In this document: piece after piece, positions 2-48,517 of the stretch
How positions within the stretch are numbered: the stretch's first letter is position 1
Layout of the letters: each line of letters begins with the position of its first letter
Assembly: GCA_029248745.1 (NCBI GenBank)
Contig: JAQWIT010000009.1
Coordinates: forward strand, 1 to 64,000
Length of the DNA stretch: 64,000 nucleotides
DNA from: Gammaproteobacteria bacterium
GTDB lineage: Bacteria > Pseudomonadota > Gammaproteobacteria > Nitrosococcales > Methylophagaceae
Direction of reading: 5' to 3'
Notes under the pieces: generated by a model
What the model saw: only the letters and a program-made list of their open reading frames with translations
Told to the model about the DNA's origin: nothing
The model's database searches: none
Program-made: the position numbers and the translations under genes

Positions 2-181
2 TACTTCACAGAGTTTACTGTGGCGCTTATCCCACCTTTATACCATATGGTTATGAAGAAAAAACTCGCTACATGGGACAGAGACTTCGCTACTGAAGGC
101 GAATTAGAAATCGCTGCTAGAATCAATACTCAAGCTGGCTACAATATGCCAGAGGGTCATGATTCATACAGCCCTATCTAA
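2..181 (+). CDS. XylM/AlkB-like membrane di-iron hydroxylase, C-terminal fragment (cut by window edge)
   Basis: Only the last 59 codons are present; the gene begins upstream of the window. The segment has a hydrophobic stretch ending in ALIPPLYHMVM, then KLATWDRDFAT and an Asn/Ala-Gly tail. From memory, this matches the C-terminus of xylene monooxygenase XylM (IPPLWF, then KLRDWDQRYAT). These integral membrane enzymes use a histidine-coordinated di-iron centre and take electrons from a [2Fe-2S] ferredoxin, and a ferredoxin gene follows at 261. The iron ligands lie upstream and cannot be checked. The substrate (aromatic methyl group, alkane or alkene) is unknown. A membrane fatty acid desaturase of the same superfamily is the main alternative. 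Confidence 0.7.
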   Translation, partial: YFTEFTVALIPPLYHMVMKKKLATWDRDFATEGELEIAARINTQAGYNMPEGHDSYSPI

Positions 182-44982: not shown

Positions 44983-45771
44983 TTAGAACTCACCACACTC
45001 AATATCAGCAATCGTTTTAGACTTAATATCTTCTAGAGAAGGCATAAAGTCATACGCTACAATATCTTGGCCTGAATAGCTCTTATGTGTTTTGATTTTT
45101 TCAAACCATCCTTTCACATTTGGACGAGAATTTAACATTTCCTCTTCACCAATTACAGATAATAAGTGTAAGTATGCAGTGAAATGAATGTCGACATAGC
45201 TAAATTCACCAACAATGTATTCTGATGCAATTTTTGCATCCAATGCATCTAACGGCGTAGCAAGCCCAGCACGTGCAGCATCAACAGCCGCATTATCAGC
45301 TGCATAACTTGCATCGCCCATCGGGCCGATGACAAGTTCTTGCATTAATGTTTCGACATGAGGTTGTACTTCAGTACGACCTACATCCATCCAGTAGTTT
45401 TGATCTGCTAATACTTCAGCGTTACGTGGCGCTAAGAAACGGCCTAAACCACGGCCTTCAACAAACACCGATGTGCCATTTTCTCCAGTCACAATATAAT
45501 CAGCTTCTTTCAAAGCAGGCATAATGCCCAGTGGTGAAATTTTACGGTAATCCTCCGTGTCTTGCTGTTTGGCTGACATATCAACCACGGCAGACTCAAC
45601 TTCAATCCCCTTTTCAGCCGCTGTTAACATGACTTTTAATGTATCAGGATGACCAGGGAAGCCCAATAGTTGCATAACGTACTGGGTCTTTTTCATCTCA
45701 CCATCACTACCGTAACGGTCATCGGCATCTAATGCTTTTGCAGCAGAACCAAAATGAAATAAATCACTCAT
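44983..45771 (-). CDS. Glutathione transferase-like protein with conserved N-terminal extension (copy 1, long type)
   Basis: A 262-residue GST-fold protein. The first 28 residues (FGSAAKALDADDRYGSDGE and flanks) are an extension not usual in GSTs but almost identical in the paralogue at 46874. The thioredoxin-like domain follows (KVMLTAAEKGIEVESAVVDM, SPLGIMPAL with the cis-Pro). The C-terminal helical domain shows YIVGEFSYVDIHFTAYLHL and ends ECGEF. The N-terminal catalytic Ser/Tyr/Cys is not obvious (LLGFPGHPDT). It presumably binds or uses glutathione; substrate unknown. Good GGAGG ribosome site. Second gene of the pair with 45796. Confidence 0.8.
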   Translation of the reverse strand: MSDLFHFGSAAKALDADDRYGSDGEMKKTQYVMQLLGFPGHPDTLKVMLTAAEKGIEVESAVVDMSAKQQDTEDYRKISPLGIMPALKEADYIVTGENGTSVFVEGRGLGRFLAPRNAEVLADQNYWMDVGRTEVQPHVETLMQELVIGPMGDASYAADNAAVDAARAGLATPLDALDAKIASEYIVGEFSYVDIHFTAYLHLLSVIGEEEMLNSRPNVKGWFEKIKTHKSYSGQDIVAYDFMPSLEDIKSKTIADIECGEF

Positions 45772-45795
45772 TCTTTTTTCCTCCAGATAAGCCGA

Positions 45796-46458
45796 TTAAG
45801 CAGCTTTTAATTGTTTTTGTTTAATGTCTTCAAGTGATGGCAAACTAGCGTAGCTCGGACGCTGCTTAACTTTGTCATACCAAGCTTTAGTATTTGGACG
45901 TAAATCAATCATGTCTTGCTTACCAGCCAACACTAGAAAGTGGGCTACGGCTGTCCAATGAACATCTGCATGACTGTAATCGCCAACGATGAATTTTTTA
46001 CCTGTTAATGCACTATCAAATGCATTCAAGTTGGTTTCAATAATCGCTTCAGCATCGGCAGCGACATCACTTCCAAAAGCAGCTGCTTTAACTAAAGACT
46101 CGACAGATGCGGCCACAATTTCAGACACTTGCCACCAGTAGTTTTGATGACCAAAGTGTTGTGCTTTCTTCGGGTTCATGAACCCTTTACCGCGCGTATC
46201 AAGGTAAGCTAAACCTGCTTCAGCACCAATGGCAACAGCATCGCCTTCTTGTAAATAAGGGTGCTTACCAAATGGTGATAGGGCACGATACTCTGCTTGG
46301 TCTTGTTCACCTGCTTGTGTATCAAGTAACTCTATTTCCAATTTGACTTGCTTTTCACCTGCCATGATTAAGCATTTAACTGTACTTAAGTCTCCTGGAA
46401 ACCCTCGTAGTTTCATGCCTGTTTCTGCTTTATTTTTCTTTTTAAAAAGCCCAAACAT
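45796..46458 (-). CDS. Glutathione transferase-like protein (copy 1, short type)
   Basis: A 220-residue GST-fold protein lacking the DADDRYGS extension of its neighbours. It starts MFGLFKKKNK, nearly the same as the ferredoxin at 261. It then shows a thioredoxin-like domain (LRGFPGDLSTVKCLIMAGEK, SPFGKHPYLQ) and the C-terminal helical domain (IVGDYSHADVHWTAVAHFL), ending LPSLEDIKQKQLKAA. First gene of a two-gene operon with the long GST downstream (24-bp gap). The C-terminal part is closely related to the fusion ORF at 47690, showing that the pair was duplicated. Confidence 0.8.
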   Translation of the reverse strand: MFGLFKKKNKAETGMKLRGFPGDLSTVKCLIMAGEKQVKLEIELLDTQAGEQDQAEYRALSPFGKHPYLQEGDAVAIGAEAGLAYLDTRGKGFMNPKKAQHFGHQNYWWQVSEIVAASVESLVKAAAFGSDVAADAEAIIETNLNAFDSALTGKKFIVGDYSHADVHWTAVAHFLVLAGKQDMIDLRPNTKAWYDKVKQRPSYASLPSLEDIKQKQLKAA

Positions 46459-46718
46459 TTTATTACCTCTTTTTCGTTAATATACTGAGCCAGTCACTTA
46501 GCTTTCATGCTTAAATTCAGTTTGATGACTGGTCCTACCCTAAAATTTAGTCGTACTTAAAAATGTGGACGCCATCCTGAAATGTATTTGAATGGCCAGA
46601 TATCGCTGAACAATAGCAAAGATCTGCTCTCTCTGACTAGTATCACTTGTGTTTTGAAATGTTACGCTGCGGTTTTAAATACCGAGTTCAGCATAGGTAG
46701 GATAGGAGGTAATTGAAA

Positions 46719-46775
46719 ATGAGACGATTCCGCTGAGGATTTATTATCCTTGTGTTTTGTCTTTTTTTTGGCTAG
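46719..46775 (+). pseudogene. Possible start of a lost exported or membrane protein
   Basis: A consensus AGGAGG (46704-46709) precedes ATG 46719 by 9 bp. The frame reads MRRFR, then TGA, then GFIILVFCLFFG and TAG. Basic residues followed by a hydrophobic segment have the form of a signal peptide or first membrane helix; CGA to TGA would explain the first stop. It may equally be chance. Opposite in strand to the flanking GST genes. Confidence 0.3.
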
Positions 46776-46817
46776 TTGTGTTTGATTTTTGCGCAGTGTG
46801 TTCGAACGTTTTCATAA

Positions 46818-46846
46818 GATCAGGCCGCTTAAGGTGCGACCTGATC
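46818..46846 (-). terminator. Hairpin after the second GST pair
   Basis: A GATCAGG/CCTGATC stem continues after one mismatch with CGC/GCG around a 7-base loop. No T-run follows on the minus strand, so it is not a strong terminator. The core matches that of the hairpin at 44931, supporting duplication of the whole GST cassette. Confidence 0.5.
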
Positions 46847-46873
46847 CAATGAATCGTTTTTTATCTGTTGAAT

Positions 46874-47665
46874 TTAGAATTCACCACATTCAACATCTTT
46901 CATGATTTTCGCTTTGATTTCATCCAAAGTTGGTAGGAAATCATAGCTAATGATATCTTGGCCTGAGAAGCTCTTATGCGCTTTGATGCGCTCGAACCAA
47001 GCTCTGAGATTACTGTGTTTAGCCAAAAGGACGCCTTCACCCAAAATAGTCAATAGGTGAATGTAAATCGTCCAATGGATATCTGCATATGAATATTGAC
47101 CTACAACGAACTCATTAGATTGCAATTGATCATCAAAGGCATCTAATGAATCCGCTAGTGCTTCACGCGCTGCGTTGATTGCCGCATCATCAGAAGCAAA
47201 GCTAGGATCTGCCATTTGGCCACACACTTTTTGCGTCATTAATGCTTCAACATGGGGTTGTACTTCTTCTTTACCCACTTCCATCCAATACATTTCCGTT
47301 GCTAAAACCGCAGCATTACGTGGTGCAAGTCTGTTACCTAGACCACGTCCCTCTATAAAGACGGCGACGCCTGATTCTCCAGCGATGGTGTAGTAAGCTT
47401 CTTTCAATGCCGGTGTTAAACCAAATGGTGAGATCGCACGGTAATCCGCGCTGTCTTGCTCATCTTTTGTCATGTCTAAAATACCGCTTTCAACTTCGAT
47501 ACCTTTTTCTGCTGCTGTTAACAAACATTTCAATGTATCCACATCACCCGGGAATCCGAGTAATTGCATGATGTATTGGGTTTTTTTCATTTCACCGTCA
47601 CTTCCGTAACGATCATCTGCATCTAGTGCTTTAGCAGCAGAGCCATAATGAAATAAATCAGCCAT
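46874..47665 (-). CDS. Glutathione transferase-like protein with conserved N-terminal extension (copy 2, long type)
   Basis: A 263-residue paralogue of the gene at 44983. The N-terminal YGSAAKALDADDRYGSDGEM is the same apart from Phe to Tyr, the thioredoxin-like part shows KCLLTAAEKGIEVESGILDM and SPFGLTPAL, and the protein ends KDVECGEF. The helical domain has FVVGQYSYADIHWTIYIHL. Strong GAGGAG ribosome site. It follows the XylM-GST fusion gene by 24 bp, the same spacing as in the other pair, and is probably cotranscribed with it. Function inferred only from the fold. Confidence 0.8.
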   Translation of the reverse strand: MADLFHYGSAAKALDADDRYGSDGEMKKTQYIMQLLGFPGDVDTLKCLLTAAEKGIEVESGILDMTKDEQDSADYRAISPFGLTPALKEAYYTIAGESGVAVFIEGRGLGNRLAPRNAAVLATEMYWMEVGKEEVQPHVEALMTQKVCGQMADPSFASDDAAINAAREALADSLDAFDDQLQSNEFVVGQYSYADIHWTIYIHLLTILGEGVLLAKHSNLRAWFERIKAHKSFSGQDIISYDFLPTLDEIKAKIMKDVECGEF

Positions 47666-47689: not shown

Positions 47690-48205
47690 TCAGGCGACTG
47701 ATCTAAGTTGTTTGTTTTTGACATCATCAAGTGATGGTAAGCCTACATAACTACTGCGGGCTTTCACTCTGTCAAACCAAGCATTGAGGTTGCTACGTGA
47801 TGAGATCATGTCTTGCTCTCCCACTAATGTCAGCATATGCGCAACGGCTGTCCAATGGACGTCTGCAAATGAATATTCACCGACGATATATTCTTTGTTA
47901 TCGATGAAAGTATTTAATTCATCTCGCCAAACCAATGAAAGCTGTAATAAAACAAAAATGGGGTACTGTGCATACATCATGGCGTTTAATAACCACGGTA
48001 CGCCATTGAGTTCACCATCCTCATCGACACCCGCAGGGTCTAATTTTACTGGTAATAGACTGGTAGCCCAATCTAGCACTATCGCTGATGCGAACATGGC
48101 TACCCCTAGCCATGTATATATTCCACCGTATACGATGCCTAGCATCGCAATAACGATCAGTAACGGTGTTAAAAAATATCTTAGATTAATGATTACTTTA
48201 TTCAT
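47690..48205 (-). CDS. Fusion ORF: XylM-like N-terminus joined to GST C-terminal domain (copy 2, short type)
   Basis: A 171-residue frame of two parts. Residues 1 to about 93 match the N-terminus of XylM-like di-iron hydroxylases: NLRYFLTPLLIVIAMLGIVY, YTWLGVAMFASAIVLD, a LLPVKLDPAG loop and MYAQYPIFVLLQLSLVW, with about three membrane helices. From about residue 95 it is the helical domain of the short GST: IDNKEYIVGEYSFADVHW through LPSLDDVKNKQLRSVA. The hydroxylase histidines and the whole GST thioredoxin fold are missing. The start at 48205 has GGAGGG 7 bp upstream. Probably the product of a deletion or recombination; activity unlikely unless it acts as a membrane anchor. Confidence 0.8.
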   Translation of the reverse strand: MNKVIINLRYFLTPLLIVIAMLGIVYGGIYTWLGVAMFASAIVLDWATSLLPVKLDPAGVDEDGELNGVPWLLNAMMYAQYPIFVLLQLSLVWRDELNTFIDNKEYIVGEYSFADVHWTAVAHMLTLVGEQDMISSRSNLNAWFDRVKARSSYVGLPSLDDVKNKQLRSVA

Positions 48206-48517
48206 TAATTTTCCCTCCAAAGTCAATTAAAAATGTCCACCTCGGCCTCTATGAACCGTTGTAACCGGTGACAAACGTACCTATGAAGTTTTCGCGACAC
48301 ATATATGTATTAGACACATTTTATATGTGGTTATTTATCCCTATAAATAGTAAATGTATTTAACCCTTTGAAAACAAGGTAATTTAGCCCTAGTAATTTA
48401 TGGAATATTAGCTGTTTTTTTCGTTTATTTTTAATGTGAAATACTTTTCTCCCGTTACAAATTCTCGACTGTTCCGCTGGGTTATTCTCTCTGAGAAACA
48501 AATGGTAAACTGGGCCT
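48206..48517. other. Divergent promoter region
   Basis: 312 bp between the fusion gene and the LysE gene. AT-rich, with the inverted repeat at 48298-48329. No gene is seen. It must hold promoters for both directions. Confidence 0.5.
48298..48329. promoter_or_regulatory. Inverted repeat, possible operator
   Basis: CACATATA and TATATGTG face each other across 16 bp; the left half also contains ACATATATGT, itself a palindrome. The site lies about 95-125 bp upstream of the XylM-GST fusion gene and could bind a dimeric regulator of the GST cassette. Confidence 0.35.

What the first reader, a model, noticed from the sequence alone, without database searches (positions are those of the whole stretch)
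47690..48205. Hybrid gene: XylM-like hydroxylase N-terminus fused to a GST C-terminal domain
About 93 residues with the features of the XylM N-terminus run directly into the helical domain of a glutathione transferase, in one frame behind a strong ribosome site. The GST half is a close paralogue of the gene at 45796, so the junction (about 47926) lies where the GST thioredoxin domain should be. A hydroxylase gene and a GST gene must therefore once have been adjacent. The hybrid may be dead, or may be a membrane-anchored GST-like binding protein.
Basis: partly seen in the sequence, partly recalled or inferred. Interest (0 to 1): 0.8.

Follow-up and report, generated by a model that had tools for sequence, protein, structure and literature searches.

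The report
Two-gene remnant fused by a deletion
In this gammaproteobacterial genome a deletion of about 2,000 bases appears to have welded the start of a membrane hydroxylase gene to the end of a glutathione transferase gene, leaving a small in-frame hybrid that has lost both active sites and is most likely a relic.

Summary
One frame, complement(47690..48205), 171 codons behind GGAGGG, starts as a XylM/AlkB-type membrane hydroxylase and ends as a glutathione transferase (GST). Relatives explain it: 5 of the 29 genus genomes searched carry an intact hydroxylase (390-391 aa), a 67-aa hydrophobic ORF and an intact GST (GST-A) in this order. Hybrid residues 1-94 match the hydroxylase start (76-87%) and residues 95-171 the GST-A end (82-95%). 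The window lacks what is 1670-2246 bp there, with 1-2 bp of identity at the junction (47924/47923). The missing parts have only paralogues (67% or less) elsewhere in the assembly. All aligned diiron ligands, the GST thioredoxin domain and the first half of its helical domain are gone, so neither activity can remain. Both halves evolved under purifying selection on most of this branch, so the deletion is young or the frame is kept; I cannot tell which. Most likely it is a recent relic that still serves as first cistron before GST-B, under the old hydroxylase promoter. None of the 58 other genomes searched has the fusion. Reads could not be checked.

The parts
47690..48205 (-). hybrid open reading frame, 171 codons + stop
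47924..48205 (-). hydroxylase-derived part: codons 1-94, up to the end of the third predicted helix
   Evidence: 76-87% identical to residues 1-94 of intact hydroxylases in 5 relatives; helices 2-26, 29-49, 70-92 in a low-confidence model
47690..47923 (-). GST-A-derived part: last 77 codons + stop (end of helix 5 to the C-terminus; helix numbering recalled)
   Evidence: 82-95% identical to the ends of GST-A in 6 relatives
48213..48218 (-). ribosome binding site GGAGGG; GGAGG kept before the hydroxylase in the five relatives aligned
48465..48486 (-). operator-like element AATAACCCAGCGGAACAGTCGA of the former hydroxylase promoter; its 14-base core has one match in this assembly at up to 1 mismatch
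46874..47665 (-). GST-B, intact; next gene, 24 bp behind the hybrid stop
45796..46458 (-). GST-C, intact paralogue of GST-A
44983..45771 (-). GST-D, intact paralogue of GST-B

Best explanation
An ancestor of this genome had the arrangement of its relatives: hydroxylase - 67-aa hydrophobic ORF - GST-A - GST-B, with GST-C and GST-D behind. One deletion of roughly 1.7-2.2 kb, with hardly any homology at its ends, removed hydroxylase codons 95 to the end, the small ORF, and GST-A codons 1 to about 148. It happened to rejoin the two genes in frame (shown by comparison, if the assembly is right). The product would be three membrane helices followed by GST helices 6-8, without iron ligands and without a glutathione site, so it can be neither a hydroxylase nor a GST (shown by absence of the residues). 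It is most likely a recent relic that has not yet decayed, still read as the first cistron before GST-B from the old hydroxylase promoter; an in-frame hybrid spares GST-B the polar effect of a premature stop (inferred).
For: Collinear intact counterparts of both halves in 5 of 29 genus genomes. Interval absent here is 1670, 1736, 2144, 2217 and 2246 bp in those five; 1 bp of identity to the right and 0-1 to the left at the registered junction. Missing hydroxylase part: best own-genome matches 67% and 62%, both at contig ends and too distant to be the missing piece, plus two short tails at 46% and 44%; missing GST-A part: best 55%, which is GST-C. The junction 30-mer occurs once in the genome. 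The ten AlkB diiron ligands start at His137 of the paper's numbering (passages of PMC10113152); the corresponding histidine aligns with hydroxylase residue 142, beyond residue 94. Loss of this hydroxylase recurs: G012 keeps GST-A to GST-D without it. Omega on the G000 branch is best at about 0.07 for both halves together; omega 1 is worse by 2 delta lnL 13.6.
Against: No reads could be mapped, and the assembly is broken at several hydroxylase paralogues. Purifying selection on both halves is also what a kept, working hybrid would show. No expression data. No strain with an intermediate state is held.
Confidence: 0.8

Rival explanations
1. The hybrid is a kept new protein: a membrane-anchored GST C-terminal fragment that binds a ligand or a partner such as GST-B.
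For: Frame intact, ribosome site and promoter element kept, low omega in both halves.
Against: No glutathione site; the helical domain is cut at helix 5; no second genome has it (1 of 29 in the genus; 1 of 59 own and relatives); a three-helix anchor would leave the GST part on the other membrane side from the N-terminus (inference). The model is too poor to judge (mean pLDDT 47). Low omega is expected anyway if the deletion is recent: by my arithmetic up to about 14% of the branch can have been neutral.
Confidence: 0.11
2. Misassembly: two pieces of a normal locus, or of two strains, were joined in a metagenome assembly.
For: Hydroxylase paralogues sit at several contig ends. No 16S rRNA gene was found, as in many MAGs, but that search rang in only 9 of 14 control genomes, so its silence is weak. 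The relatives named are MAGs.
Against: Graph misjoins need a shared word; in the relatives the longest common word within 150 bases of the two ends is 7-8 bases in four and 13 in one, and 1-2 at the junction itself. The hydroxylase half is only 43-44% identical to the own paralogues. No contig end holds the missing parts. The in-frame join would be a 1-in-3 accident.
Confidence: 0.07
3. The first half is an unrelated membrane protein and the likeness to XylM is chance.
For: Pfam finds no family in residues 1-94 alone.
Against: 76-87% identity to the start of five full hydroxylases; the one of them tested (G011) carries FA_desaturase at 1e-24 and matches AlkB structures.
Confidence: 0.01

Closest known systems
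XylM / AlkB membrane diiron hydroxylases (Pfam FA_desaturase)
   Same: Residues 1-94 descend from the start of such a gene.
   Different: All aligned iron ligands and the C-terminal 300 residues are gone; the parent (G011 copy) is only about 31% identical to plasmid XylM.
Cytosolic glutathione transferases (parent, G003 copy, closest to GST F9, 6ezy, by phmmer)
   Same: Residues 95-171 are the end of such a protein, helices 6-8.
   Different: Thioredoxin domain, helix 4 and most of helix 5 are missing.
Natural AlkB-AlkG (rubredoxin) fusions, e.g. Fontimonas thermophila AlkBG (PMC10113152, passages seen)
   Same: A membrane hydroxylase gene fused to a neighbour of its pathway.
   Different: There the hydroxylase and its electron donor are both kept and were expressed and solved; here both partners are fragments.
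Chimeric ORFs left by deletions between neighbouring genes (recalled from general knowledge)
   Same: Start of one gene joined in frame to the end of a downstream gene, with near-zero homology at the junction.
   Different: Nothing essential; the parents here are unusual.

Membership tests
XylM/AlkB membrane hydroxylase | histidine/glutamate diiron ligands | tested here: not met
   all ligands aligned lie beyond parent residue 94
XylM/AlkB membrane hydroxylase | FA_desaturase (PF00487) match | tested here: not met
   no match in the hybrid; the G011 intact gene scores 1.1e-24
XylM/AlkB membrane hydroxylase | common descent of the N-terminus | tested here: met
Glutathione transferase | N-terminal thioredoxin-fold domain with the glutathione site | tested here: not met
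   absent; the part matching GST-A residues 1-148 is missing
Glutathione transferase | C-terminal helical domain | tested here: inconclusive
   only helices 6-8 remain; GST_C_3 17.6 bits, cut-off 21.6
Deletion-born chimeric ORF | both parents intact, collinear and nearby in relatives | tested here: met
   5 of 29 genus genomes
Deletion-born chimeric ORF | junction present in reads | not testable with these tools
   no reads held
Functional hydroxylase fusion (AlkB-AlkG kind) | both catalytic or redox domains whole | tested here: not met

The most novel reading that the evidence does not exclude
The deletion created a new gene that is now kept: a three-helix membrane anchor carrying the end of a GST helix bundle, used to dock the neighbouring GST-B/C/D proteins or a ligand at the membrane under the old hydroxylase promoter.
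Probability: 0.08. Interest if true: 0.6.

Novelty: new member of a known kind. Interest (0 to 1): 0.3.

Why it matters
It is a clear case, with both parents preserved in sister species, of two neighbouring genes joined in frame by one deletion. It shows that this lineage lost one hydroxylase subfamily while keeping three of the four GST genes next to it, which suggests that those GSTs do something without that hydroxylase. If the hybrid proved to be expressed and kept, it would be an observable early step of new-gene formation. The parent cluster itself looks uncharacterised in the searches I made and may deserve more attention than the hybrid.

Tried and rejected
Pfam gave one family set under its cut-offs and NCBIfam nothing for the hybrid; a plasmid search with it found nothing. 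16S search for naming the organism: none found, with only 9 of 14 controls ringing; I did not name the genus. Mixed alignments of N- and C-fragments misplaced the N-fragments, so the fold used the N-fragment alignment A2 only; the model is too weak for any conclusion and I did not run a fold search. Literature searches gave no title or abstract start that describes this fusion or this hydroxylase-GST locus; one search was made for AlkB structure. Only two papers were opened, by passages (PMC8371827; PMC10113152). I considered selection for the hybrid from low omega and rejected it as proof, because a young deletion gives the same value. Single-gene trees disagree with each other on the place of G000; the omega fits assume the concatenated topology (support 83-100). 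G018, G022 and G015 were left out of the tree and omega fits because they have no orthologous hydroxylase and no GST-A at this locus; G012 is absent from the hydroxylase-half fit; the controls had 7 (GST-B), 5 (GST-C), 5 (GST-D) and 6 (CtpA) taxa.

Full report
What is there. The minus strand of 47690-48205 holds a frame of 171 codons that starts at ATG 48205 behind GGAGGG (48213-48218) and stops at 47690. Pfam gives only sub-threshold GST matches, the best GST_C_3 for residues 98-150 (17.6 bits, cut-off 21.6), and nothing for the first half. In the own genome (1.73 Mb, 20 contigs; the window is C13:1-64000) the first half resembles other hydroxylase-type genes at 43-44% and the second half resembles GST-C at 58%.

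Where it comes from. A search of 59 genomes (own and relatives) gave matches in 10, all of the same genus; at E 1e-20, 9 of 29 genus genomes match. In five (G010, G016, G011, G003, G002) hybrid residues 1-94 match, at 87, 85, 84, 81 and 76%, the start of an intact hydroxylase of 390-391 aa. Residues 95-171 match, at 90, 86, 87, 95 and 82%, the end of an intact GST of 223-225 aa (GST-A) further downstream on the same strand. A search with the whole G011 hydroxylase finds this subfamily (87-100%) in the same 5 of 29, and paralogues at 58-63% in several genomes including the own. G012 has GST-A (88%) but no hydroxylase before it.

Flanks. In G010, G016, G003 and, as far as the stretch fetched goes, G011, the genes on the left are those of the window: a flavoprotein-like ORF, a dihydropteroate-synthase-like ORF and two further ORFs (names by likeness, not searched). 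On the right stand GST-B, then GST-C and GST-D in G010, G016, G003 and G012 (not in G011), then a CtpA-like protease gene. G002 differs: its contig starts 202 bp before the hydroxylase and behind GST-B it has a 129-aa and a 1008-aa ORF instead. In none of the 5 loci does the listed match cover both halves.

The junction. In the relatives the interval that the window lacks is 2246 (G010), 1670 (G016), 2217 (G011), 2144 (G003) and 1736 bp (G002). At the registered junction 1 base is shared to the right and 0-1 to the left. Within 150 bases of the two ends the longest common word is 7-8 bases in four relatives and 13 in G002, away from the junction. The window reads tggcga|gatgaatta: hydroxylase Trp93-Arg94, then Asp-Glu-Leu-Asn of GST-A. 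The 30-mer across it occurs once in the genome at up to 2 mismatches. The lost hydroxylase part (G011 letters) finds only paralogues at 67% (C14) and 62% (C17) plus two short contig-start tails at 46 and 44%; the lost GST-A part (G003 letters) finds only GST-C (55%), GST-D (40%), GST-B (39%) and a C12 GST (32%). So the missing piece was not found elsewhere in the assembly.

What was lost. The parent hydroxylase (G011 copy) has FA_desaturase at 1.1e-24, matches AlkB structures 8f6t and 8sbb and is 30.8% identical to XylM of P. putida plasmid NC_003350 over 97%; the best of 47 plasmid records is a Polaromonas 'fatty acid desaturase' at 31.2%. The AlkB paper (PMC10113152, passages; that 8f6t is its entry is my recollection) lists ten diiron ligands from His137 on; in the 8f6t chain, whose numbering seems shifted by 3, the first of these aligns with parent residue 142, well beyond residue 94. 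The parent GST-A (G003 copy) has weak GST_N (19.5 bits, cut-off 20.9) and GST_C (21.6, cut-off 20.7) matches and aligns over most of its length to GST F9, 6ezy. The part kept starts in the last turn of helix 5 (helix numbering recalled). Hence neither active site can exist. A fold of the hybrid gives three helices in the first part (2-26, 29-49, 70-92) and four in the second, at mean pLDDT 47, too low to use.

The small ORF and the promoter. The relatives also have, 60-96 bp behind the hydroxylase, a 67-aa ORF, hydrophobic by eye (5 of 5), which is missing in the window too. An operator-like element with the core AGCGGAAYAGTCGA stands before the hydroxylase in G010, G011, G003, G016 and before the hybrid; a second copy stands before GST-A in G010, G011, G003, and G012 has one there. 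In the window the 22-base form has one match at up to 3 mismatches, none expected. In the own assembly the core has one match, exact, at 48465-48478; the backward control pattern has four at up to one mismatch, so the core alone is not rare enough for a regulon search. The hybrid and probably GST-B now depend on the hydroxylase's promoter (inference). G016, and the short gap of G002, show no exact core between hydroxylase and GST-A, so that arrangement exists naturally.

Selection. Neither differs from the background (2 delta lnL 0.50 and 0.18), though both point estimates are higher. Controls on the same branch: GST-B 0.042, GST-C 0.090, GST-D 0.028, CtpA 0.026. Both halves together peak at 0.07, with a 95% interval of about 0.03-0.17 read from the grid. 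If the hybrid became neutral when it formed, my arithmetic allows up to about 14% of the branch since then. So the hybrid is either young or kept. The halves are short (94 and 77 codons), the branch is long, and no closer strain is held.

Verdict. Real sequence feature (about 0.93), origin by in-frame deletion near certain if the assembly is right, function most likely none. The locus has lost its hydroxylase elsewhere too: G012 lacks it with GST-A to GST-D kept, and the G018 stretch has neither hydroxylase nor GST-A and GST-B, while its GST-C and GST-D are broken. Several neighbouring G018 genes are also broken, so sequencing errors are possible there. That makes relic status the economical reading.

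Noticed in passing
L040:6052-6255 (G010), L042:5804-6007 (G011), L008:2572-2772 (own C12), L053:8203-8406 (G015): A 67-aa hydrophobic protein (M[SA]SFK...W...P.WA...PF.W or PY.W) accompanies hydroxylase genes of both subfamilies (8 copies aligned); Pfam finds no family for the G015 copy, the only one scanned. It may be an unrecognised small subunit of these hydroxylases.
   Followed up: partly
own C13 58000-70032 (L060), own C12:1-14000 (L058); parts of the same order in L051, L053, L062: Other hydroxylase copies sit beside a CbbQ/NorQ-type AAA protein and a VWA protein; a GST, a XylA-like ferredoxin reductase, the 67-aa protein, a FadL/TodX porin and then Sox-like genes (Mo oxidoreductase and 5'-nucleotidase families by Pfam; Sox names by likeness) follow on C12. 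The link of C13 end to C12 start is inferred from L051. It suggests a hydroxylase-GST route for a hydrophobic, perhaps sulfur-containing substrate.
   Followed up: partly
48465-48486; L040, L042, L043, L045: Element AATAACCMAGCGGAAYAGTCGA with further conserved blocks (GGGTTAAA, TAATACGTATAGG) occurs before the hydroxylase and again before GST-A in three relatives: probably a dedicated operator array. Recombination between its two copies could explain the clean hydroxylase loss in G012.
   Followed up: partly
window 2-151; own contigs C1 start, C12 start, C13 both ends, C14 end, C17 end: Pieces of hydroxylase paralogues lie at six contig ends, so similar hydroxylase copies seem to break this assembly; the window begins inside one.
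   Followed up: partly
44983-47665: GST-A/B and GST-C/D look like two tandem pairs (G010 GST-A to own GST-C 53%, own GST-B to GST-D 64% identical), so an ancestral GST pair was probably duplicated as a unit; the G011 and G002 stretches show only the first pair.
   Followed up: partly
PMC8371827, passages: The paper reports glutathione S-transferases among methylotrophy-related proteins expressed in North Sea bloom metaproteomes, with Methylophagaceae among the clades discussed; whether the GSTs of this locus are among them was not checked.
   Followed up: no
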